From contig JAQWBP010000004.1 of the NCBI GenBank assembly GCA_028706315.1, positions 1 to 36,277 on the forward strand: a DNA stretch of 36,277 nt, read 5' to 3'. Both the position numbers and the translations under genes were made by a program. This DNA is from Syntrophomonadaceae bacterium (lineage in GTDB: Bacteria; Bacillota; Syntrophomonadia; Syntrophomonadales; Syntrophomonadaceae). Shown piece by piece: positions 1,948-15,766 of this stretch (position 1 is the first letter of the stretch; each line of letters begins with the position of its first letter). The notes beneath the pieces are model-generated. The model was given only the letters and a program-made list of their open reading frames with translations, was not told the origin of the DNA and did no database searches.

Positions 1948-4900
1948 TCAAATCTTCGCCAGCACTTTAAGCTTCTTGCCATCGGTACCAGTCTGAACTT
2001 TTTCGTAATTGACTTTCACGCCATCGTCTGAATCAAAAGCAATACGTGCAAGGGCGAGGTGAGCGATTTTCTCATCATAGTCCTTAGTTTCTTTCAATTG
2101 CTTTGTTAGCTTTTCTTTCCGTTTTTGGGCGGCAGTCACCTCACGTGCATTGGTGCTTTTCTCAATGGTTTCCTGCATTCTCGAAATCTCACTTTCATAA
2201 ACACGCTGCATCCGGTGAAGATAATCTATACGCAAATTACCAATAGTATCTGCATTATACCGGTGCATATATATCAGAGCTTTAAACCCATCTGCTTTGC
2301 CGCTGTCAAACATCCAGTATATTGGCCTCTTCTTATAAATCTTGCAGTGATCTTTAAAGAAGTCTTTTAGGAAGTAATTGCGGATAATTTCGCGTGAACT
2401 ATTACCCTTGTTGCCCAGAGCATTTGCAATAAAATCAAGGTTCTCTTCTAAAGTATCTGCGCCAAAAGTCTTTTTTAAGAAAGCGCAGAATAAGCCTACA
2501 ACGTCATCCTCAAAGTACTCCTCATCCGTAATAGGAAGTATATTATCTTTGTCCGGAATAAAGGTGCTGTATTTGCTGTCATCCCATTCACCACCAGCAT
2601 AAACAAGTCCATCTACATCAAGGCTATAGCGACCAAACATACAACCAACGGCATAGGAAATGAAAGACTTAATTACATCACTTTTGGTAAGTACATAATT
2701 ATTGCCCTTCATGCTTTCGGGGATATCTTCCTTTGAATCATAAATCCGGGCAACAGTGACATCCTTGTCATCAACTTCGGGGCTTAGTTCGTCCTTTAAG
2801 CCGTAAATTTCGATAAAAATGCGGTTGAGTTCTTCTTCGTTGGCCTTAAGTTGATTAAAGCGATCATCACATTCTTTTTGCCAATTTTCAAATGCAGATT
2901 GCACAGTTGTACCATTCAACAGGTGTTTTTCAAAATCCCATGAAGTTTCAAAAGAGTCCCAGTCTTTTTTGGATATATTAATATTTTTGCGAACTAACTC
3001 CACAATAAAATCTTTGTGGTTATCATCTTTAATAATAGGTAATTTGCTAATGGTCCCCGGGTTAAAGTGCATTGACGGAGCCAAAATTGCCAAAAATGAC
3101 ATTGCAGGTTTTGAATTCATCAATCCAATAATATAATTAATATCATTTTTTGGCGCAAATCCCATCAACCCAGAAGAATCAAAAATAAAATGACCACATG
3201 CTCGTCTTACAGAAATATCCCCAGTTGAAATATCCGACCAAGTAAACCCTTCTTTGAAGTACATATCTGAATTAACAATCCTACCTCCACTTGCGCCTTC
3301 TGCTGCTTTGCGAATTTCCTGGCCATTATTATACCAATTCACAACCCATTCATTATTACCAAACCATTTTCTGTAGCTACCGCCTTTATTGTGAGGGAAA
3401 AATTTAAATTTGCAGTCTTCCGTTTCTAAGATATCATTATAGTTCCAGCCTATATTTCGGGCACTCACTTCGAACCATTTACGTAGAAATCTTGTGTTAT
3501 CGGTTGTCGACAAGCCACTTTTTGCCTCTGCAAAAGCTGAAAAAGGTAACGTTGTTGAAAAAACAGTAAAAATATTTTTGGAAAGCCAATACGCAATTGG
3601 CATACCGGGGATTTTGAAGAAGTTTTCCTGCTTTGAGGTATGCAAATCCTTTTTCTTAAGAAACGCAGATTGTTTTCCCTGCTGGCTGCCATATTTAACT
3701 AACCGTATATAATTGCCCTGATATCCCAATGAATGAGTGTTGCGCAATATATAGCTGGTGGTCTGCACTACCTCGCCGCCAATTTCTTCAAATGCTCGTG
3801 CACCAAGGTGTGCCATGTTTATAATATCTTTTTGCAAAATCTTCTCACGCAGTTTTTCAAAACTTGAAAGGAACATCCACGCGTGCTGGGTTATCATCGC
3901 CTGATAGCAATTTTTTTTTGTCATTTGCCCGCAGCGTTCAATAAATACTGCAAACAAATCGCTCTTGCTGTCAGGATAGTTCTTTTTTACAAAATCAGAC
4001 AACTTTATTCCCATACCGCTACTGCCCATATACGGTGGATTGGTTACAACTACATCATACTTCTGTGCCATCGTGGCACCAATCTCTACCAACAAGCGCA
4101 GTTGGTTTTTGGTATCATCAATACCGACTGTATCCAACGCCATCTGACCGATCATATCCACGTTTTCAACGAACTGGTAGAGCAGTTGCCAGTTATAGTT
4201 CTCTACATTGAGAATAGAGCCGTATTCCTTGGCGTCAGTGAACGTATCCAGCAAACCCTGCATTTGAAACCTTGCGGTACTAAGTTCCCTTTCGCCTATA
4301 TCGGCGCCAAAATATTTCAGCTGTACACGATTAATTTCATTACTTTCCTGAATAGCATATAGATTGCACTTCGTCTCGCCATTCAAAATCCGGCGGTTAT
4401 ATCGTCTTGCTTTCATCATTACAGCAAAATAAGCAAGCTGATACGCACGGTTATCAATATCCAATCCATAAAGGTTATTTTCCAGAATACTCTTTGCCGC
4501 ATCACGCTGGCTGTAGCCACAGCTTTCATAAATCTGCACCAGCACTTCAAAAGCATACACCAAAATATGACCACTACCCATACAAGGATCAATAAACTTG
4601 ATATCTTCCGGCTTGATGATCTTGTATTCCTCACGAATTTTTGCAAATTGAGCCTGAACCTCCGGTTCCTGTTCTGCTTCATCCAGATAATATTTCCACT
4701 CAGATTTCAAAGCATCATTAGGATGACCTTCGAGCCAAAGACGGCCAAGGCTGTTTTCCACCATATAGCGTACAATCCAGTGTGGGGTAAATAACTGAGT
4801 AGCAGCCGGAATACGCTCCTTAGTAATCTTCACATTCTTTTTCAGCAGGGCAAATGTTTCGTCCTTTAGCTCTGTATTGTAGTACTGATACATCCAGCCG

Positions 4901-5586
4901 ATAATCTCCACTTGTCCTTCTTTTTCCACATTGAAATCATCTTCTAAAATATCATGCACTAGATGATATACTATGCCGTCCTTGTCGGTGAAAGATACGT
5001 TCATCAGTAACTCAGTATAGTCGTTGGTTTTCTCAAACAATTCCGGTAGGATCTTATTCAACTCATTGCACTGTTTAATAAAAAGCATACAGAACAGCTT
5101 ATCCAAATAATTATCATTTTTAAGCTGCATGATGCGATCTTTTTCATAGGGAGTATATTCTAAATCAGCTTCAAAAGGTGAAGTTACCAAATCCGGTTCA
5201 ATTTTCGTGCTGCTCTCAGAAGAAAGTACCCGCATACGAGATGGAAGGTAGTCGTTGACCTCCATGAAACGCACGGCAATCAGGCGGTTAAACCATGTAT
5301 AGGCAACCTCTTCAACAACGCCTTTATAGGCAGTCTCATAATCAGACTGTCTTTCCTTTTGTTGAATAGTCTCCACCAGTTTCCTGCGCTGCTTAATCTC
5401 CACCCCAGTAATTGAATAAGGTTCTTTTGTACCAATATCAAAAAACTGGACATCCTTTGTTGACTGGGGAAGTGGGTTTTTTATTCCATTTTCTGTAACA
5501 CCCAACAACCCTGCCTTATATGTAATATCTGCAATAAGCTTCTTTCTTGCCCATATTGCAAAGTTTTTAATTGCTGTTTTGTTCAC
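1948..5586 (-). CDS. pglX: BREX-1 adenine-specific DNA methyltransferase PglX
   Basis: A 1212-residue protein of the length usual for BREX-1 PglX. GTG start, chosen because GGAG lies eight bases upstream and the N-terminus (MNKTAIKNFAIWARKKL) is typical. A QLFTPHWIVRYMV segment (264-276) precedes the SAM-binding motif I, DPCMGSGH (333-340); the catalytic NPPY motif is at 516-519. The C-terminal half holds the presumed target-recognition region and a charged helical tail (about 1140-1190). PglX methylates the non-palindromic BREX site on host DNA and is needed for phage exclusion. The gene is separated from brxC by about 100 bp containing an inverted repeat. A nine-base A tract lies shortly after the catalytic motif. 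The frame is intact. Confidence 0.93.
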   Translation of the reverse strand: MNKTAIKNFAIWARKKLIADITYKAGLLGVTENGIKNPLPQSTKDVQFFDIGTKEPYSITGVEIKQRRKLVETIQQKERQSDYETAYKGVVEEVAYTWFNRLIAVRFMEVNDYLPSRMRVLSSESSTKIEPDLVTSPFEADLEYTPYEKDRIMQLKNDNYLDKLFCMLFIKQCNELNKILPELFEKTNDYTELLMNVSFTDKDGIVYHLVHDILEDDFNVEKEGQVEIIGWMYQYYNTELKDETFALLKKNVKITKERIPAATQLFTPHWIVRYMVENSLGRLWLEGHPNDALKSEWKYYLDEAEQEPEVQAQFAKIREEYKIIKPEDIKFIDPCMGSGHILVYAFEVLVQIYESCGYSQRDAAKSILENNLYGLDIDNRAYQLAYFAVMMKARRYNRRILNGETKCNLYAIQESNEINRVQLKYFGADIGERELSTARFQMQGLLDTFTDAKEYGSILNVENYNWQLLYQFVENVDMIGQMALDTVGIDDTKNQLRLLVEIGATMAQKYDVVVTNPPYMGSSGMGIKLSDFVKKNYPDSKSDLFAVFIERCGQMTKKNCYQAMITQHAWMFLSSFEKLREKILQKDIINMAHLGARAFEEIGGEVVQTTSYILRNTHSLGYQGNYIRLVKYGSQQGKQSAFLKKKDLHTSKQENFFKIPGMPIAYWLSKNIFTVFSTTLPFSAFAEAKSGLSTTDNTRFLRKWFEVSARNIGWNYNDILETEDCKFKFFPHNKGGSYRKWFGNNEWVVNWYNNGQEIRKAAEGASGGRIVNSDMYFKEGFTWSDISTGDISVRRACGHFIFDSSGLMGFAPKNDINYIIGLMNSKPAMSFLAILAPSMHFNPGTISKLPIIKDDNHKDFIVELVRKNINISKKDWDSFETSWDFEKHLLNGTTVQSAFENWQKECDDRFNQLKANEEELNRIFIEIYGLKDELSPEVDDKDVTVARIYDSKEDIPESMKGNNYVLTKSDVIKSFISYAVGCMFGRYSLDVDGLVYAGGEWDDSKYSTFIPDKDNILPITDEEYFEDDVVGLFCAFLKKTFGADTLEENLDFIANALGNKGNSSREIIRNYFLKDFFKDHCKIYKKRPIYWMFDSGKADGFKALIYMHRYNADTIGNLRIDYLHRMQRVYESEISRMQETIEKSTNAREVTAAQKRKEKLTKQLKETKDYDEKIAHLALARIAFDSDDGVKVNYEKVQTGTDGKKLKVLAKI
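3911..3919 (-). repeat. A9 homopolymer tract inside pglX
   Basis: Nine consecutive T on the plus strand, A9 on the coding strand, spanning the codons for T-K-K-N about 35 residues after the NPPY motif. It lies in a coding frame that is intact in this assembly. Slippage by one base would truncate PglX before its recognition region. Phase variation here is inference. Confidence 0.6.
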
Positions 5587-5619
5587 AAAGTCACTCCGTT
5601 CGCTTATTTCAATTAGGTA

Positions 5620-5693
5620 TTAGGAGTGAGGAGTTAATTCTTAACACAATTATCAGCTGCCATATCTCCTCACCCCTAACTCCTCATTCCTAA
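5620..5693. repeat. Inverted repeat between brxC and pglX, overlapping the brxC stop
   Basis: Left arm TTAGGAGTGAGGAGTTA at 5620-5636; right arm TAACTCCTCATTCCTAA at 5677-5693. The arms are reverse complements at 16 of 17 positions, with a 40-bp centre that contains another CTCCTCACCCC block. The right arm includes the brxC stop codon (TAG on the minus strand). It looks like a short mobile palindromic repeat; a transcript attenuator between the two genes is the alternative. Confidence 0.7.
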
Positions 5694-8600
5694 AACTCAA
5701 TATTGATGATGGTATCCTCGTCTAACTCTTTTAGAATTCGTTCTCTGAGAACAGCCATATATTTATCTACATCCTGTACTGTCTCAATCTGCCACGAAGC
5801 AGACAGATTAACAGTTTTGATACTGATATTCTTTCTTTTCTTAATCTTAGGCTGAGGTTTATGTTCAGATTTTTCACCATCACCATAATGAGCTTTTTCT
5901 TCAGCAACTTTATCCTTTGCAATCTGTTCATCCTTCTTGGACATTTCGTTTAGCAGACGGACTTTCAGGGCATCGGCTTCAACCTTGATATTCTGTAAAG
6001 TCGCTACATTATTGCAATGAGCAGCTTTATCATTAATTTCATTAAACAGCTTGGTAAAACGGTCACTTAGCTCTGCTTTATAAGGCTTAGTTTCAAGAAC
6101 CTCAAACACTCTGCATCTTGCATCATCAATGGCTGCCGTTATCGGAACTCCCATGTTTGCCAGAACCTTCCGATATGCTTCTGTAAAACGATCTAACAGC
6201 TCAGGCAGTTTCGGAATTTCTCTATACGGAGCATCCTTTTTTAGAATCGCCTTAATTTCTGCGACCACATTCTCGACCTTTTCATCCGCGATAAAGGTTT
6301 TGCTGTCGTCATAAATACCTATAAGATGAATTGCCTTCTCAAAGATGGGCTTTTGCTCACCGTCAAAGAAAGCCTTTACCGGCTCATAATCCTCGGCAAA
6401 ATCCAGATAATCATCCCGATTCGCAGCAAGCTTTTTGAAGAACTCTATCGGGGATTGAATCTGAATCACATCACGGAGCAATTTCTTACCAGAAACCACG
6501 ACCTGTTTACCAGGAAGCGGACTGCTCCGATACATGATTTCAAATTTCTCCAGATCATTCAAAATGCTTTGGCTGTAAGTCTGAAAGCTGCGCATCATAG
6601 AATCATCATCGTCATTAACGCCGGAAATACCGAACAGTTCTTTCATTACCTCACGGGCAGCTTTCTTCTGGGTATCATTGGCCTTTTCGCGTCTTTCAGT
6701 TAACAGCTTCTCAACAAATTCTTTTTTGGTAATATAACGAATAATTTCATCCTCAGATTTATTGAGCAGGGTGACACTGCTGCCATTAACAGTGAAGGAA
6801 ATATCGCCGTTCTTGAATAGCTTGGCAACAAGCCATTCCACATCGTCTTCCACAAAACCGTAAGGTGCTTTCATAAAGCGATCCATCAGGCTTTTCATGG
6901 AAGTTTTTACATGCATAGAAGAATTAGTAGCAATGAAACTTAACATATCATTAAGCGCATGGATATTCGATTCTGTACCGCCTTCCAGCGTAAGAGTCTG
7001 CTGATTTGAGGTCTTGAACATTGCCCGGATATTGGCTTCACTCATGGCTGTATCAATATAAGGCAGCTTATGGTATACAGTAGAAACTAAACGGCCAAGG
7101 GCATCATTAATTCTATTTGCCACATCCTTGGTACCAATCTGAGCTTTATCTCCGTTTACATAAATATCGGCATTTTTCATAGATTCAATAAGAAAAAGCT
7201 TGGCATTGCTATTACGTTCCCTCATCTCTGCACGTTTGGCTTCTTTAATCTGCTCGAATTTCATTACCCTGCTTGATGTAGTCAGTCGCAGGTATTTTTC
7301 GATTTTTAATGCACTTCTGATTTCATCCAAAAAAGCAGAATCATTAGGTAGTACAACAAGAACTTCCTTGCTCTGACCTGATATCATTCGCAAAGTGGTA
7401 TCTTCAGAGCCATAGTCAGAGTATGGGGTAAGTACCTTTACACCAATATCGTGGCTTTGATTTGCCCTATAGGGACGGTCATCCACGATCTGATTGAAAG
7501 CAAAGCTATACCTTCCATTAAATGATGGATATCGGTATTTTTTATCACTGAAAATATCTTCAAAAATAAGTTCGGAAACCTTATTTATTATCTCTGCCAT
7601 CTCAACATTCTGACTGTCTATTTCTCGATTGATTTCCTGTTCCTCATCGGTTAGGAACACATAGATATCACCATTCTTCTGAACTAACATTTGACGGGCA
7701 AGAATTTTCAGAGCTTCTTCAACCTGTTTTTTTAGTTCTATTCTGTCGGTATCAATATCAGAGATCATCAGACTTGTAATATTTTCGATGTTAGCTTTTA
7801 TCTCTTTTACGTATTTAATCATAAACAGTGTCTTCAGAACGTTGACTGCAAAACAATCCTCCAGTTTATCAGGGTTTATATAGCTGTTGTCCATAGCGCG
7901 GCTTATCACACCCTTATGGCTGTGATCCAGGAACTGGTGCAGGGCATCATAGAACACATTGAATGGGATAAGCGTACCAACAGGACAATTCATCAGTTTT
8001 ACTGCTGATTCCTTGAACAAAGCAATCATGGAACGTTCACCCTCAGACAGATGCTTACCTGACGCTCCATGAGTTCTGATGGAAGTCAGAACACTGCCCA
8101 GCAGGTTAAACTGATAAGGTACAAAAGGATAAACGGCAGCAAAGTCACTGTCATCAGCATACAGTTTTTTCTCTACGCCATCATTAAATACAATCAGGTT
8201 TTTGATAATAGTGGACTTCTGTTCATAGAGCAGCCTAAGGGTTTGTTCAGCAGTCGTGTTTTTATCCAGAATTCTCTTCTTAATAACCTCATCGACGTTA
8301 GCTGAGGAAAGAGCGAGGCGGGTATCAAAACGACCCTGAATTTTTGAGAAATCATTGCCTTTGATTTTTGTAACAGAATCAATATCCTGCTGGCTGGTCA
8401 CAATGATCCAGACCTTACCATGACAAGCCGTACCCAAATCCTCAGTTACGGTTTGCAGATCAAGCATCAATTTGGAATCATCACCTATGTATTGACCGAT
8501 CTCATCTACCAAAAAAACAATATGATAGTTATTACCTTTGTGGCTAAGGTATTCCTTTACCAACCGGGCAAAGTTTTCAATGCTGATATTATAAGGTTCA

Positions 8601-9295
8601 GTTGCTTTTTCGCACCAGTTACGAGCAGCTGCCTCGCTCATAAATCCCATTTCATTAATAACATCAACAATGCTGTCCTGAATGAAATAAAATTTATGCC
8701 GGGATTCTTCCCACGGTTTCCCAAATTGTTCTTCAAACAGTCCTTTGAATTCTGCATAACGATCTTTTTCAACTAGCTGTCTTTCCAGATCAGCTAGAAA
8801 AGGAACAGAACCACAAAATCCCTGCATTTCATTGAATACTTTCAGAAAAACAGAGACGATCGCATCCTTGGATTGTTTGCCGGTCATCTCGCTTTTAGAA
8901 TCAATGTTAAATAGGATAACATCGGTAGGTACACTAGTAGCTAGCTTCATGTCAGCTAGTACCATGGGATCAATGATTTTATTGTCTTCAACAAAATAGT
9001 CAATTGCTTTCTTTCCATCAACTTCAACATTGCCAAGGATGTAGGAAAGAATTTTTAGAAAGTGTGATTTACCACTACCAAAGAAACCGGATATCCAAAC
9101 GCCCATTTTATCGGTGTGGCCATTAATTCCTTTCTTGTAGCTTCCAAAAAAGTCTGCAAAATGTTTTTGCAGCTCTCTTGTAACAACGTATTCTTCAAGC
9201 TCCTGCCGGATATTTGTTTCATCGCCCTGACCGACTTTGATAACGCCTTTAATATCCCGATCAATCGGCTTTGCAAACATATCTTTGATAATCAT
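5690..9295 (-). CDS. brxC: BREX system P-loop ATPase BrxC
   Basis: A 1201-residue AAA-type ATPase, the usual size for BrxC/PglY-like proteins (DUF499-related). ATG start with AAGGAG eight bases upstream, 12 nt after brxB. Walker A GFFGSGKS is at 70-77 and the Walker B strand HIVFLVDEIGQYI at about 258-270, both in the N-terminal third; the rest is long and mostly helical, with a lysine-rich segment (PQPKIKKRKN) near the C-terminus. In BREX this large ATPase is essential for phage exclusion and is thought to act with PglX and PglZ in a DNA-associated complex. It is the central gene of the operon. The stop codon lies within an inverted repeat, so the last residues (INIEF) could differ from those of relatives lacking the repeat. 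Confidence 0.94.
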   Translation of the reverse strand: MIIKDMFAKPIDRDIKGVIKVGQGDETNIRQELEEYVVTRELQKHFADFFGSYKKGINGHTDKMGVWISGFFGSGKSHFLKILSYILGNVEVDGKKAIDYFVEDNKIIDPMVLADMKLATSVPTDVILFNIDSKSEMTGKQSKDAIVSVFLKVFNEMQGFCGSVPFLADLERQLVEKDRYAEFKGLFEEQFGKPWEESRHKFYFIQDSIVDVINEMGFMSEAAARNWCEKATEPYNISIENFARLVKEYLSHKGNNYHIVFLVDEIGQYIGDDSKLMLDLQTVTEDLGTACHGKVWIIVTSQQDIDSVTKIKGNDFSKIQGRFDTRLALSSANVDEVIKKRILDKNTTAEQTLRLLYEQKSTIIKNLIVFNDGVEKKLYADDSDFAAVYPFVPYQFNLLGSVLTSIRTHGASGKHLSEGERSMIALFKESAVKLMNCPVGTLIPFNVFYDALHQFLDHSHKGVISRAMDNSYINPDKLEDCFAVNVLKTLFMIKYVKEIKANIENITSLMISDIDTDRIELKKQVEEALKILARQMLVQKNGDIYVFLTDEEQEINREIDSQNVEMAEIINKVSELIFEDIFSDKKYRYPSFNGRYSFAFNQIVDDRPYRANQSHDIGVKVLTPYSDYGSEDTTLRMISGQSKEVLVVLPNDSAFLDEIRSALKIEKYLRLTTSSRVMKFEQIKEAKRAEMRERNSNAKLFLIESMKNADIYVNGDKAQIGTKDVANRINDALGRLVSTVYHKLPYIDTAMSEANIRAMFKTSNQQTLTLEGGTESNIHALNDMLSFIATNSSMHVKTSMKSLMDRFMKAPYGFVEDDVEWLVAKLFKNGDISFTVNGSSVTLLNKSEDEIIRYITKKEFVEKLLTERREKANDTQKKAAREVMKELFGISGVNDDDDSMMRSFQTYSQSILNDLEKFEIMYRSSPLPGKQVVVSGKKLLRDVIQIQSPIEFFKKLAANRDDYLDFAEDYEPVKAFFDGEQKPIFEKAIHLIGIYDDSKTFIADEKVENVVAEIKAILKKDAPYREIPKLPELLDRFTEAYRKVLANMGVPITAAIDDARCRVFEVLETKPYKAELSDRFTKLFNEINDKAAHCNNVATLQNIKVEADALKVRLLNEMSKKDEQIAKDKVAEEKAHYGDGEKSEHKPQPKIKKRKNISIKTVNLSASWQIETVQDVDKYMAVLRERILKELDEDTIINIEF

Positions 9296-9307
9296 TGTTC
9301 ACACTCC

Positions 9308-9886
9308 TTAATCAACGAGCCGGAATGCTCTATAATAGTTGTCGTCTTTAATTTTAGAAAAAAGGACCAGTTCCTGCCCGTCATATTTTCCCGGGTAGAA
9401 CATCACAACCGGCACACGGTCAATCACTTGATGTAAGTTGTTTAATACCTTGTGTGACCGAAGTAACGGGTAGCATTTACCGATGCCGGTTATAAATATA
9501 ACTGCCTCCTCTGGTGTACGCTCCTGAATATACTGAACAATCATACCGGCATCATTATCGATCTGCAGTAAATTTCCAACTGCCTTTACGATGTAAGCCA
9601 TCCCTTTGTTCTTTTCAAACTGGAAACACTGCTCCATAAACCCTTCCTGCTCAAGTATATCAATCACAATATCATAAAGATCAAAGACTACCAGTTCAAA
9701 ACCATCTATAGACTTTGCATTTTTTGCTTTCAAATATTCGATTCGTTCTCTGACGACTAATTCTTGCTCCGCCGGGTAATCAAAAACATAATAACCCACT
9801 TCATTTCCAAGGCCCTTATTCTGGCGAAAACTAGGCGTTTTTATCATACGCTCGGCTTTGTCTAATCTTTCTTCCAAACTGGGCAT
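9308..9886 (-). CDS. brxB: BREX protein BrxB (DUF1788)
   Basis: A 192-residue protein typical of BrxB/DUF1788: it starts MPSLEERLDKAERMI, has a central DLYDIVIDILEQEGF segment, and ends with VVMFYPGKYDGQEL followed by FRLVD. The ATG directly follows the brxA stop (TAAATG), with a GGGGGTGAG ribosome binding site inside the end of brxA, so translation is probably coupled. BrxB is required for BREX immunity in studied systems but has no known enzymatic activity. No transmembrane or signal segment. Identity is supported both by sequence character and by position between brxA and brxC. Confidence 0.92.
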   Translation of the reverse strand: MPSLEERLDKAERMIKTPSFRQNKGLGNEVGYYVFDYPAEQELVVRERIEYLKAKNAKSIDGFELVVFDLYDIVIDILEQEGFMEQCFQFEKNKGMAYIVKAVGNLLQIDNDAGMIVQYIQERTPEEAVIFITGIGKCYPLLRSHKVLNNLHQVIDRVPVVMFYPGKYDGQELVLFSKIKDDNYYRAFRLVD

Positions 9887-10489
9887 TTATCTCACCCCCG
9901 TTAGGGCACGAATTGTCATTTCCATATCATTGCTTCTAAGACATTCTTCCAACGCTTTGTCTAAAATAGGTTTTAAAATTTTTCTGTTTCCGAAAGAACG
10001 ATCTATTAAACCGGCTTCCATAAGCATTGTCTTATAACAAGCGCCTAGCCGCTTAAGCGTATAATCTTTCCACTTTGCAACCTTTTCGCTTTGTAATTGC
10101 TTGTCCTTAAAGAAAATTCGAATATCACTGTCCGTCAATTCATTATTGCCAATAATTAGTTTTTCTCTATAAACCTCATAAACGAAGTCAAAGAATAGGC
10201 TATCTGTCTGCATAATTGCGATTAGTACAATAATTTTTTGCGTGGACAGATCGCTATTCTCGAATAGTTTATAAAACGACGAATCTAAACCTTTTACACG
10301 GTTCGAAACTGTATTAAAAATTTGAATTGCCCTTGCCTGTGTTGGAGCTGAAAAAATATTTTTTTCTATATTTAACGTCTTAATTTTCGCCAGATTTTTT
10401 CCGCTCTCAAGCAGACCAATGACTTTGCGAAATTCGGAAAACCAAAAAGATAGCTTAACCATTCCTGCACTATATTTTTTTCTTTCCAT
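9887..10489 (-). CDS. brxA: BREX protein BrxA (DUF1819)
   Basis: A 200-residue protein with the expected BrxA size and features: an N-terminal KYSAGMVKLSFWFSEFRKV segment, a middle NTVSNRVKGLD stretch and a C-terminal KRLGACYKTMLMEAGLI region. ATG start with AGGTG eight bases upstream. In characterised systems BrxA is a small, DNA-binding, NusB-like helical protein; its exact role is unclear. It is the first structural gene of the operon, 45 bp after the remnant of an XRE-type regulator gene and downstream of an IS remnant, so the original promoter may have been displaced. Confidence 0.9.
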   Translation of the reverse strand: MERKKYSAGMVKLSFWFSEFRKVIGLLESGKNLAKIKTLNIEKNIFSAPTQARAIQIFNTVSNRVKGLDSSFYKLFENSDLSTQKIIVLIAIMQTDSLFFDFVYEVYREKLIIGNNELTDSDIRIFFKDKQLQSEKVAKWKDYTLKRLGACYKTMLMEAGLIDRSFGNRKILKPILDKALEECLRSNDMEMTIRALTGVR

Positions 10490-10714: not shown

Positions 10715-11489
10715 TGAGGATTTTGCAAATTAAATAAGTCAATAATATAGGCATTTTAAGAGGACATAAAAAGGTCTTCACCCCTCATAATGTCTAAATT
10801 ATAGGTAACAACCAAAAAAAATCAACCGAGGTGAAGTCACTTATGAATATTCGACAGAACTGCATTTTCTCCTTTTAAGACCATTGAAAATGCAACCAGA
10901 ATCCAGGCTTGAGAAGATAATTAACACCCTTGATTTAGATCCAGTTCTTGCTAAATTGAATAAACCTGATGAAAAAAAAGTCGGACCCAAATCTTACCCA
11001 GTCTATGCTATGTTTAATGCCCTGATCGCTATGAGACTGGAGAATATGAATACTTTTACCCAACTGGTTGAACGGCTAACTCATGATCCCCAGCTAATGT
11101 ATGTTTGCGGTTTTGAACCCTTTGGCACCGCACCCAGCATATCCTGTTTCAGCCGTTTCAAAGAAAACCTGGGCTTAGAAACCGGGTTGAACGTAAGAAA
11201 AATCAATAAAGTTGCAACCCATGCTTACCTTTGTGCCATAACCATGATTGCCGTTGTAATAGCAGTTAACCAGGAAAGCAGCACTAAGTCCTTGGCGGCA
11301 TAGCCCTGAATTTATCGGGTTTTAAAAGAACTAAAATCTTAAAAGGGAGTAGTCTGTCTTTTTTCGGTAACCACAATAAGCTGACCGTTTTGACCGGAGT
11401 AATATGGTAATAATTGTTATTGCCAACCGTGGAATATTGTTTGGCTTGCCTTGTTAAGAGCATTTTTTCGAATTATGCAAAAGTCTCAA
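10714..11489. mobile_element. Internally deleted insertion sequence (DUF772-type transposase), 776 bp
   Basis: The ends form an imperfect inverted repeat: the left end reads TTGAGGATTTTGCAAATT, and the right end, reverse complemented, reads TTGAGACTTTTGCATAATT. Inside is one broken transposase gene of which only the N- and C-terminal parts remain. An intact element of this type would be roughly twice as long. No convincing target duplication is seen (left flank ...TTATCAA, right flank GTGAGAGG...), so one side has probably been rearranged. Family assigned from the DUF772-like transposase N-terminus; the exact IS family (IS5/IS1182-like) is not certain. Confidence 0.75.
10843..11303 (+). pseudogene. 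DUF772-type transposase remnant with stop, frameshift and internal deletion
   Basis: An ATG at 10843 preceded by GAGGTG opens MNIRQNCIFSF, then meets TAA at 10876. The sequence resumes, after an apparent one-base loss near 10884, as KMQPESRLEKIINTLDLD, GPKSYPVYAMFNALIAMRLE and GTAPSISCFSRFKENLG, which is the DUF772 N-terminal domain of IS5/IS1182-like transposases. It then jumps directly to VRKINKVATHAYLCAITMIA, which looks like the extreme C-terminus, so the catalytic DDE core is deleted. The protein cannot be active; mobilisation would need a transposase in trans. Confidence 0.8.
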
Positions 11490-12003: not shown

Positions 12004-12534
12004 TTGTCCTTAATTCCTGATTTCTTAAATAATGATTACTATTTACCTAAAGGTGAATATAAATGTACAATAAAAGAAATGGAGGAATCATTTCTATTTT
12101 CTGACAGGCGTAAAATGTTATGGAAGTTGTTTAAAGACTTTACATATAGACTTACTACGCTTGGAATAACTCCAGATGCAGTATTAGTAAATGGTAGCTT
12201 TGTTACAAAACGCACTGATCCGGGTGATGTGGATTTTGTTTTCTTAATCCCCATGGATAAAATTAATACTGCCCTTGCCACTGCAGAAGATGAACATGAC
12301 GAAACAGCTCTACTTATGATATTTCACCCTGATAACCAGTTGCCTATACGAATCTTATATGGTGTACACTTTCTCTATGCCCGCAATCAGAGCGAGTTTG
12401 AATATTGGTCTTATTACTTTCAAAATGGTGTTCGCGAGCCAGATCCTAAGCGAGATCCGCCTTGGGTTAAATCTCCTACAGGAAAGGGAATACTATACAT
12501 AGATGGAGGTGAGTTGATTAATGGAATTGAGTAA
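12004..12534 (+). CDS. Predicted nucleotidyltransferase (DUF6932-like), first gene of a defence-island pair
   Basis: A 176-residue protein with a TTG start, chosen because AAAGGAGGGG lies upstream. Residues 63-77 read NGSFVTKRTDPGDVD: the GS turn followed about ten residues later by D-V-D matches the metal-binding signature of DNA-polymerase-beta-type nucleotidyltransferases. The N-terminal part (DYYLPKGEYKCTIKEMEESF) and the GSFVT...PGDVD spacing fit the small family annotated as DUF6932. Such enzymes transfer a nucleotide onto protein, RNA or small molecules; the target here is unknown. The end overlaps the next gene by 14 bp, so the two are almost certainly co-translated. Codon use is AT-rich, unlike the core genes to the right. 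The fold class is fairly secure; its role as part of a defence or toxin-antitoxin system is inferred from location. Confidence 0.7.
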   Translation: MSLIPDFLNNDYYLPKGEYKCTIKEMEESFLFSDRRKMLWKLFKDFTYRLTTLGITPDAVLVNGSFVTKRTDPGDVDFVFLIPMDKINTALATAEDEHDETALLMIFHPDNQLPIRILYGVHFLYARNQSEFEYWSYYFQNGVREPDPKRDPPWVKSPTGKGILYIDGGELINGIE

Positions 12535-13549
12535 TAATATGAATTTGGATAGTCAGCTCATTGAACTTCAGAAAGAGATAGTGTTTTTTAATAAAGTTCG
12601 TTTGAACTATGAAAATCTTCAAAAAGAACTTATAGGAAATGAGCATCTACGCCATATTTATGAGCCTTCAGCTAAACTTTTATTAGACCGTGCTGAAGAG
12701 GATCTTGCTATAGCATTCAAGCAAATAGCTAACTCTTATGTAGATATTGATTCTGTTGAAGCCGTAGCACGCCAAACAAACGCTAGCACAATGGATGTTA
12801 CCATAGAGACACCTGAGAAGAGTATAAGTGGATTTATTGAGATGGGGTTATTAGGTAAAACTCTTAATAGTTTTCAGTCTCTTATATATTCTATTATTGA
12901 TCCATCTAAAGGTAGAAAAAAAACAGTTATTAGAGATGCTGGAGCATTAGCCGTGAGTGCCTTTGCCCCCGGCTCTTTTGTGGTTAGAGTTCACGAGCAA
13001 ACTAATGGTTTAATTGCTGATGAAAATTTAATTCTAGAAAAAACCGTTCCTATTATCGGCTCCCTTATGGAAGCATCCGAGGATGTTGCTAAGCTAAAGG
13101 AAGCTACATCTGATTTAGAATTAACAACAGTATCAATATATCGTAATTTCTTAAAAACACTATCAAGCGGAGACTCTGGAATTAATATTAAGTGGGTATC
13201 ACCTTCAGGTAATAAGCGCAATCATTCATTAAGTTCTCAGCAGGTTAAGAATGCAATTAGTTTGTTTAATAATGACAAAAGCCTTACCAGTCGACCAATA
13301 ACAGTTGATGGAATTCTTACAATGTTTGAAAGAGATGATATTAATAACCGACGTAACTTTAAATTAATTGGTTTTGATGAAGTTTCCTATAGTGGAATTG
13401 TTGATGAAAAAGTTCCTGGTTGTTTTGTTCCAACTAATATCTCAGCGCTGATAGAAGAACAAATAGAGGTAAATAATACTACTGATGAAGAGTTTATTAA
13501 ATATATCTTATTGTCGGTGGATGATTCTTTTGCAAATGATGACAAATAA
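12521..13549 (+). CDS. Unrecognised 342-residue partner of the nucleotidyltransferase
   Basis: ATG start with GGAGGTGAG upstream, inside the last codons of the nucleotidyltransferase. I do not recognise the family. Visible features: a helical, charged N-terminus (1-75, partly coiled-coil-like), a small-residue segment GALAVSAFAPGSFVVRV (141-157) that looks like a buried strand/turn, a second helical stretch (165-215), a polar linker, and a C-terminal beta-rich part (ITVDGILTMFE at 260-270, then FKLIGFDEVSYSGIVDE at 280-296) resembling a small barrel. No signal peptide or membrane helix. It may be the target, inhibitor or effector partner of the nucleotidyltransferase. The stop at 13547-13549 may be premature: one reading-frame shift there extends the protein by about 31 residues. 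Confidence 0.65.
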   Translation: MELSNNMNLDSQLIELQKEIVFFNKVRLNYENLQKELIGNEHLRHIYEPSAKLLLDRAEEDLAIAFKQIANSYVDIDSVEAVARQTNASTMDVTIETPEKSISGFIEMGLLGKTLNSFQSLIYSIIDPSKGRKKTVIRDAGALAVSAFAPGSFVVRVHEQTNGLIADENLILEKTVPIIGSLMEASEDVAKLKEATSDLELTTVSIYRNFLKTLSSGDSGINIKWVSPSGNKRNHSLSSQQVKNAISLFNNDKSLTSRPITVDGILTMFERDDINNRRNFKLIGFDEVSYSGIVDEKVPGCFVPTNISALIEEQIEVNNTTDEEFIKYILLSVDDSFANDDK

Positions 13550-13768: not shown

Positions 13769-13780
13769 ATCTAACTTGGT

Positions 13781-13869
13781 TGGTGCCCGAGGCCGGAATC
13801 GAACCGGCACGACCGGTAAAGGTCGCGGGATTTTAAGTCCCGTGCGTCTGCCTGTTCCGCCACCCGGGC
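13781..13869 (-). tRNA. tRNA-Leu (anticodon TAA)
   Basis: Cloverleaf with acceptor GCCCGGG / CTCGGGC-type pairing, a long variable arm as expected for Leu, anticodon loop CTTAAAA in a CGGGA/TCCCG stem, T-loop GGTTCGATTCC and an encoded CCA (13781-13783). Last gene of the five-tRNA operon and the border of the accessory island. Confidence 0.95.
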
Positions 13870-13886
13870 ATGATATTTAATTAAAA

Positions 13887-13962
13887 TGGAGGGCGGGATC
13901 GGATTTGAACCGATGAATGGTGATTTTGCAGACCACAGCGTTAGCCTCTTCGCCACCCGCCC
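13887..13962 (-). tRNA. tRNA-Cys (anticodon GCA)
   Basis: Acceptor GGGCGGG pairs with CCCGCCC, discriminator U and CCA encoded. Anticodon loop CTGCAAA gives GCA; T-loop GGTTCAAATCC. U73 is typical of tRNA-Cys. Confidence 0.94.
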
Positions 13963-14101
13963 ATATTTAACTTGTTACGCTGGTTAGCGCACAATTTATT
14001 ATAGCAATTTTGCCTCTCTATTGCAAGCTAAACTCTAAGCTTGCAGGCATCTAGACTATTTCCAAAATAAAAGCGTTACGTAAGTAACGCTGAGTAATCA
14101 A

Positions 14102-14176
14102 TGGAGCGGAAGACGAGATTCGAACTCGCGACCCTCGCCTTGGCAAGGCGATGCTCTACCACTGAGCCACTTCCGC
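14102..14176 (-). tRNA. tRNA-Gly (anticodon GCC)
   Basis: Acceptor GCGGAAG pairs with CTTCCGC, discriminator U, CCA encoded. Anticodon loop TTGCCAA in a TCGCC/GGCGA stem; T-loop AGTTCGAATCT. Confidence 0.95.
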
Positions 14177-14183
14177 TCATTAA

Positions 14184-14259
<76 letters not shown>

Positions 14260-14263
14260 TTAA

Positions 14264-14340
14264 TGGCGAAGCCGATGGGATTTGAACCCACGATCTCCGG
14301 CGTGACAGGCCGGCATGTTAAACCGCTACACCACGGCTCC
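14264..14340 (-). tRNA. tRNA-Asp (anticodon GTC)
   Basis: First gene of the operon. Acceptor GGAGCCG pairs with CGGCTTC (one G-T), discriminator G, CCA encoded. Anticodon loop CTGTCAC; T-loop GGTTCAAATCC. Confidence 0.94.
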
Positions 14341-14510: not shown

Positions 14511-14678
14511 ATGGGTGGCTACAAAAAAGATAAAGATTCTGTTGCTCATGCTAAAGGTAAAAATAACACTAAATTCTCTAATGAGCTATTTGCTGCGGTT
14601 GATGACTTTTTTTACGAGTTTGGTATTATTGGTAAACAAAAAAATAATAACGAAAATTCAAAAACAGAGGATTCATAA
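14511..14678 (+). CDS. Small hypothetical protein (55 aa) upstream of splB
   Basis: ATG preceded by GGAGGTGATATCC, an almost perfect Shine-Dalgarno sequence that decides this start over an upstream in-frame TTG. The product is hydrophilic and lysine/asparagine-rich, with a short amphipathic middle (FSNELFAAVDDFFYEFGIIG, 23-42) and an acidic/polar tail. No recognised family; it does not resemble Bacillus SplA. It ends about 50 bp before splB on the same strand, so it is probably co-transcribed, and a spore-related role is a reasonable guess from context only. Confidence 0.6.
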   Translation: MGGYKKDKDSVAHAKGKNNTKFSNELFAAVDDFFYEFGIIGKQKNNNENSKTEDS

Positions 14679-14731: not shown

Positions 14732-15766
14732 GTGCCAGCAATTTATAGATTTAAACGAGTATTTTTTGAAAGAGACGCCCTCGACTATCCTATGGGTAAG
14801 GAGATGTACCAGAATTTTAAGAATGACGGTTATAATGTAGAATTCTTGCAATCACATAACCGTGTTACAGGGATTCCCGGTAAAACATCCCGAGAAGCTT
14901 TTTATCAGGGAAAAAGTACGCTGGTAGTAGGGATGCGCAGAACGCTTGATTTCGCTACCTGTAAACCTTCAGCCCATTTTCAGCTTCCCCTGGTTACTGG
15001 GTGTGAGGGTATGTGCGAATACTGTTATCTTAATACGCAGTTGGGGAAAAAGCCCTACACCCGTGTATATGTAAATATTGATGAAATCTTATCTCAGGCT
15101 AAAAAATATATTGAAGAACGAAAACCTGAAATTACTCTTTTCGAAGCTGCAGCCACTTCAGATCCGGTTGCAGTTGAACCTTATTCAGGAGCACTGGCCA
15201 GAGCGATTACCTTTTTCGCCGGCGAGGAGATGGCACGCCTGCGTTTTGTTACTAAGTTCCCTTATGTTGATTCACTTTTAAACCTGGATCACCGTAAGCA
15301 TACACGTATTCGTTTCAGTATTAACACTGAGCGGGTAATAAATGCCTATGAACACCGCACTCCCCCGCTATCAGAGAGGCTCACTGCTCTGAATAAAATT
15401 TTGGAATACGGCTACCCTGGCGGGGTTATTATAGCACCGGTAATATTAGATGAAGGTTGGCAAAAGGAATATGACTCTTTATTGCAAAAAATGAGGGAAA
15501 GTATCATATATGACAGCGATAATAATGATATCCATTTTGAGATCATATCTCACCGATTCACCCGCCGTGCCCGCACTAATATCCTGGAAGTTTTCCCTGA
15601 GACAACTCTGCCCATGGACGAAGAAACTGGCCGCAAATTTAAATACGGCCAGTTTGGGTATGGTAAATTTGTCTATACTAATGAAAAACTAGAAACTATG
15701 AAAGACTTTTTTTCTACCCGCATCAACGAGTTATTCCCTGGTACAGAGATAGACTATATGATTTAA
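14732..15766 (+). CDS. splB: Spore photoproduct lyase (radical SAM)
   Basis: A 344-residue enzyme that directly reverses the thymine-dimer 'spore photoproduct' during germination. GTG start with CAGGAGGTAAAT upstream. The radical-SAM cluster motif is C91-x3-C95-x2-C98 (CEGMCEYC), matching Bacillus numbering without gaps. Other family marks are LGKKPYTRVYVN (104-115), FEAAATSDP (137-145) and NTERVINAYEHRTPPLSERL (from about 197). Odd point: position 141, the conserved Cys that donates the final hydrogen atom in the B. subtilis enzyme, is Ala here, while position 77 (FATCKPSAHF) is Cys where Bacillus enzymes, as I recall, have Ser. The frame is otherwise intact, so the protein is probably active with a rewired hydrogen-transfer path. 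Supports an endospore former. Confidence 0.95.
   Translation: MPAIYRFKRVFFERDALDYPMGKEMYQNFKNDGYNVEFLQSHNRVTGIPGKTSREAFYQGKSTLVVGMRRTLDFATCKPSAHFQLPLVTGCEGMCEYCYLNTQLGKKPYTRVYVNIDEILSQAKKYIEERKPEITLFEAAATSDPVAVEPYSGALARAITFFAGEEMARLRFVTKFPYVDSLLNLDHRKHTRIRFSINTERVINAYEHRTPPLSERLTALNKILEYGYPGGVIIAPVILDEGWQKEYDSLLQKMRESIIYDSDNNDIHFEIISHRFTRRARTNILEVFPETTLPMDEETGRKFKYGQFGYGKFVYTNEKLETMKDFFSTRINELFPGTEIDYMI

What the first reader, a model, noticed from the sequence alone, without database searches (positions are those of the whole stretch)
14960..15154. Spore photoproduct lyase lacks Cys141 but has Cys77
By gap-free numbering (cluster C91/C95/C98) the codon at 15152-15154 is Ala (GCC) where the Bacillus enzyme uses Cys141 as hydrogen-atom donor. 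The codon at 14960-14962 is Cys (TGT) in FATCKPSA, a position I recall as Ser in Bacillus. This suggests an alternative hydrogen donor; I recall that clostridial enzymes show such rewiring but cannot verify it here.
Basis: partly seen in the sequence, partly recalled or inferred. Interest (0 to 1): 0.6.

Follow-up and report, generated by a model that had tools for sequence, protein, structure and literature searches.

The report
Ordinary clostridial-type spore photoproduct lyase
The gene encodes a standard DNA-repair enzyme of bacterial spores whose key cysteine sits at the position usual for clostridia rather than the one used by Bacillus, a difference already described in the literature.

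Summary
The ORF at 14732-15766 (+) is a spore photoproduct lyase (SplB; TIGR04070, 517.7 bits, cut-off 400). Residue 77 is Cys (TGT, 14960-14962) and residue 141 is Ala (GCC, 15152-15154). Both align without gaps to S76 and C140 of the solved Geobacillus enzyme. Cys77 is the only cysteine outside the cluster motif. The interpretation, that Cys77 replaces Cys141 as hydrogen donor, is well supported: all 225 non-redundant SPLs have exactly one of the two cysteines (C77/A141 131, C77/S141 27, S77/C141 67, both 0, neither 0). But it is no oddity of the window: C77/A141 is the commonest state, and S77/C141 is found almost only in Bacilli. It is also published: Clostridium acetobutylicum SPL uses C74, and the Geobacillus enzyme was engineered to S76C/C140A (PDB 4RH0/4RH1; Benjdia 2014), the window's natural combination. 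New points are minor: strict exclusivity, a C77/S141 state grouping with the Bacilli clade, and a possible second origin of S77/C141, not proven (AU p = 0.10). Verdict: real, correctly read, already known; low interest.

The parts
14732..15766 (+). splB, spore photoproduct lyase, 344 aa, GTG start, TAA stop
   Evidence: TIGR04070 517.7 bits vs cut-off 400; Pfam SPL 418.9 bits; AF2 model pLDDT 93.2 matches PDB 4fhf/4fhc/4rh0 at TM 0.95
14960..14962 (+). [quoted passage not shown]
   Evidence: only non-cluster Cys in the protein; aligns with Gt S76, Cys in the engineered 4RH0; Cys in 158 of 225 SPLs; literature C74 of C. acetobutylicum SPL
15002..15025 (+). CX3CX2C motif (C91, C95, C98) binding the [4Fe-4S] cluster
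   Evidence: translation; conserved in all aligned SPLs
15020..15028 (+). codons of Y97, C98, Y99; Y97 and Y99 are the radical-relay tyrosines of the Bacillus enzyme
   Evidence: translation; YY in 236 of 237 aligned sequences; role from PMC5368176 and PMC3742179
15152..15154 (+). codon GCC, Ala141 at the place of Bacillus Cys141
   Evidence: Ala in 131, Ser in 27, Cys in 67 of 225 SPLs

Best explanation
This is a functional clostridial-type spore photoproduct lyase. Radical cleavage of SAM by the [4Fe-4S] cluster gives the 5'-deoxyadenosyl radical, which takes H6proR from the spore photoproduct; the lesion fragments to a thymine allylic radical. Here Cys77, not residue 141, gives the hydrogen atom to that radical, and the thiyl radical is passed back through Y99/Y97 to regenerate SAM. 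The Cys-to-Tyr step is the uncertain one, because Cys77 is projected to lie on the opposite side of the pocket. Shown here: identity, residues, exclusivity, fold. Inferred from characterised homologues: the chemistry.
For: SPL family membership and fold, TM 0.95 to Gt SPL including 4RH0 C140A/S76C. Cys77 is the sole non-cluster thiol. 225 of 225 non-redundant SPLs carry exactly one Cys at 77 or 141. Q84 goes with C77/A141 (131 of 131) while Ala/Ser84 goes with S77/C141 (67 of 67). C. acetobutylicum SPL uses C74, at the opposite side of the pocket, and gives about 20% TpT-SO2- (PMC5368176). Benjdia et al. [quoted passage not shown] The genome holds three alpha/beta SASP matches, so its spores are expected to form the lesion.
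Against: No assay of this protein. The co-variation rests on few independent changes (4 on the careful tree), so it is strong as a constraint but weak as a phylogenetic statistic. The AF2 model has no DNA, SAM or cluster, and no coordinates were available to measure distances.
Confidence: 0.93

Rival explanations
1. Cys77 is not the donor; the protein is a degenerate or repurposed SPL, or the allylic radical is quenched by a tyrosine or an external thiol.
For: A more divergent SPL-like group in the same taxonomic family has neither Cys77 nor Cys141 (Asn/Ser) and scores below both NCBIfam cut-offs, so donor-less or re-tasked relatives do exist.
Against: The window protein scores well over the TIGR04070 cut-off, keeps the cluster and relay residues, and belongs to a large group in which Cys77 is invariant (131 of 131). 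None of the 225 aligned SPLs lacks both cysteines.
Confidence: 0.05
2. The apparent C77/A141 pattern is a misalignment or sequencing error, with another Cys filling the 141 site.
Against: Gap-free alignment to five PDB sequences; no other Cys in the protein; the same two residues in all of the nearest relatives that cover the sites, 66-72% identical.
Confidence: 0.01

Closest known systems
Clostridium acetobutylicum SPL (Yang, Adhikari, Gross and Li 2017, cited in PMC5368176)
   Same: Donor Cys (C74 there) is reported at a different place from Bacillus C141, on the other side of the pocket; by position it corresponds to Cys77 here
   Different: Only in sequence and numbering; its sequence was not held here, so the residue correspondence rests on the paper's statement and on the Clostridium sp. 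CCUG 7971 protein (L033, 54% identical, C77/A141)
Geobacillus thermodenitrificans SPL C140A/S76C (PDB 4RH0/4RH1; Benjdia et al. 2014)
   Same: Exactly the C77/A141 combination, same fold (TM 0.95)
   Different: Engineered in a Bacilli-type enzyme; Ala instead of Gln at site 84, Glu instead of His at site 82
Bacillus subtilis / Geobacillus wild-type SPL (PDB 4FHC/4FHD)
   Same: Family, cluster motif, Y97/Y99, fold
   Different: Donor Cys at 141 (140), Ser at 77 (76)

Membership tests
Spore photoproduct lyase (SplB, TIGR04070 / Pfam PF20903) | Score over the curated cut-off along the full length | tested here: met
   517.7 bits vs 400, residues 6-344 of 344; PF20903 418.9 vs 27
Spore photoproduct lyase (SplB, TIGR04070 / Pfam PF20903) | Radical SAM CX3CX2C cluster motif | tested here: met
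   C91, C95, C98
Spore photoproduct lyase (SplB, TIGR04070 / Pfam PF20903) | Relay tyrosines Y97 and Y99 | tested here: met
Spore photoproduct lyase (SplB, TIGR04070 / Pfam PF20903) | One active-site donor cysteine, at 77 or at 141 | tested here: met
   Cys77; 225 of 225 SPLs have exactly one
Spore photoproduct lyase (SplB, TIGR04070 / Pfam PF20903) | Same fold as solved SPL | tested here: met
   AF2 pLDDT 93.2; TM 0.95, rmsd 1.2-1.5 to the six listed Gt SPL chains
Spore photoproduct lyase (SplB, TIGR04070 / Pfam PF20903) | Repairs SP in vitro | not testable with these tools
   needs purified enzyme
Bacillus-type SPL subgroup (donor Cys141) | Cys at 141, Ser at 77 | tested here: not met
   A141, C77
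Clostridial-type SPL subgroup (donor Cys77) | Cys at 77 with Ala (or Ser) at 141; Gln84 in the Ala141 set | tested here: met
   C77, A141, Q84, H82

The most novel reading that the evidence does not exclude
The SPL donor thiol moved between two sides of the active site more than once in nature: along the lineage to Bacilli, perhaps through a C77/S141 state (Cys and Ser exchanging places), and independently in a non-Bacilli lineage (L158/L159, S77/C141, which also share Ala84, His94 and His96 with the Bacilli set). No both-Cys or neither-Cys form was seen among SPLs, which suggests that two thiols in the pocket are not tolerated.
Probability: 0.4. Interest if true: 0.35.

Novelty: already known. 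Interest (0 to 1): 0.12.

Why it matters
The strict one-thiol rule over 225 enzymes is a compact constraint for anyone modelling the SPL radical-transfer path, but it refines known enzymology and does not open a new question.

Tried and rejected
Misalignment or a hidden Cys near 141: rejected. Chimera between Bacilli-type and clostridial-type SPL as the source of L158/L159: segment identities show only residues 78-115 slightly closer to the Bacilli set (best 0.87 vs 0.79), the rest ambiguous; inconclusive. One origin of S77/C141: not rejected by the AU test (p 0.101), though the tree prefers two and the constrained tree is 28.7 log units worse. Rooting with the distant N/S group was done but its branch is very long, so the direction of change is not claimed. 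Active-site distances could not be measured, as model coordinates were not exposed. The Benjdia 2012 and Yang 2017 papers themselves are not held. The named-genome scan returned only five loci, so most relatives are unnamed.

Full report
OBSERVATION. The ORF at 14732-15766 (+), GTG to TAA, codes for 344 residues. Codon 77 is TGT (14960-14962), codon 141 is GCC (15152-15154); the cluster cysteines are 91, 95 and 98, with Tyr at 97 and 99. HMMER alignments to the five distinct PDB sequences of Geobacillus thermodenitrificans SPL pair query 77 with Gt S76 and query 141 with Gt C140, without gaps. The protein has four cysteines in all: 77 and the three cluster ligands.

WHAT IT IS. It is a spore photoproduct lyase: TIGR04070 517.7 bits over a cut-off of 400, Pfam SPL 418.9 bits. 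The AlphaFold2 model (mean pLDDT 93.2) superposes on Gt SPL with TM 0.95. The genome has one SPL gene and three matches to alpha/beta small acid-soluble proteins, the proteins under which this lesion forms in spores (established knowledge).

CO-VARIATION. Relatives were collected from a draw across the phylum, the window's own taxonomic family, Bacilli and two further groups, giving 237 non-redundant sequences. Apart from 12 distant SPL-like proteins, 225 are SPLs. Their residues at 77/141 are C/A 131, S/C 67, C/S 27; none has both cysteines and none has neither. Ignoring ancestry, the chance of such a split is about 5e-59, but ancestry cannot be ignored: a careful tree with the two columns masked needs only four changes among the three states. 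Other positions follow the state: Gln84 in 131 of 131 C/A against Ala or Ser in 67 of 67 S/C; His82 mostly in C/A, Glu mostly in S/C, Asp in C/S. The sample of S/C sequences was enlarged on purpose; in the earlier collection (phylum draw plus window family) C77 outnumbered S77 by 136 to 11, with some duplicate entries.

WHERE THE STATES LIE. All sampled SPLs of the Bacilli draw are S77/C141 except L243 (C77/S141), which groups with the Bacilli clade. The 17 C/S and Bacilli S/C rows of the careful tree form a supported group (100/96), with C/A outside it. L158/L159 (S77/C141) fall among the C/A sequences, which would be a second appearance of the Bacillus arrangement, but forcing all S/C rows together is not rejected (p-AU 0.101), and L158 shares A84, H94 and H96 with the Bacilli set. 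I leave this open.

LITERATURE. PMC5368176 states that the conserved cysteine of C. acetobutylicum SPL is C74, projected to lie at the opposite side of the pocket from the relay tyrosine, and that this enzyme gives about 20% TpT-SO2- on the dinucleotide. Its reference list holds Benjdia et al. [quoted passage not shown] The PDB describes 4RH0 as the C140A/S76C mutant, and its sequence shows both changes. The window's combination is thus a known natural type and has also been engineered. That 4RH0 belongs to the 2014 paper is my inference from its content and release date. The Bacillus mechanism (C141 donor, Y99 relay) is in PMC3742179.

MECHANISM. [quoted passage not shown] acetobutylicum SPL. 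Identity, residues, exclusivity and fold are shown here; donation and relay are inferred from homologues.

VERDICT. Observation confirmed, interpretation supported, already known; low interest.

Noticed in passing
window 14511-14678 (+): Unannotated 55-aa ORF with a good ribosome-binding site directly upstream of splB (FFYEFGIIGK core), no Pfam match; homologues, 35-62% identical, in 13 of 53 other genomes of the family, several of them within about 0.1-4 kb of splB. Possibly a small spore protein co-inherited with splB.
   Followed up: partly
L148-L155 (genomes G417, G426, G123, G423, G015, G405, G403, G432): A divergent SPL-like group in the window's own taxonomic family, about 30% identical, below both NCBIfam cut-offs, with Asn/Ser at 77/141 but conserved Cys at their own positions about 102, 107 and 307: no SPL-type donor Cys, function unclear.
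   Followed up: partly
window 1948-10489 (-): BREX genes in a row: PglX (1948-5586), BrxC (5690-9295), BrxB (9308-9886), BrxA (9887-10489); 769-1935 gave no PADLOC match, and PglZ/BrxL were not looked for.
   Followed up: no
window 12004-13549 (+): DUF6932 protein (176 aa) overlapping a 342-aa ORF without any Pfam match; looks like a two-gene unit near a transposase-domain ORF (10884-11303).
   Followed up: no
window about 13780-14340: The stretch between the two-gene unit and splB looks like a cluster of tRNA genes on the minus strand (read by eye, not run through ARAGORN).
   Followed up: no
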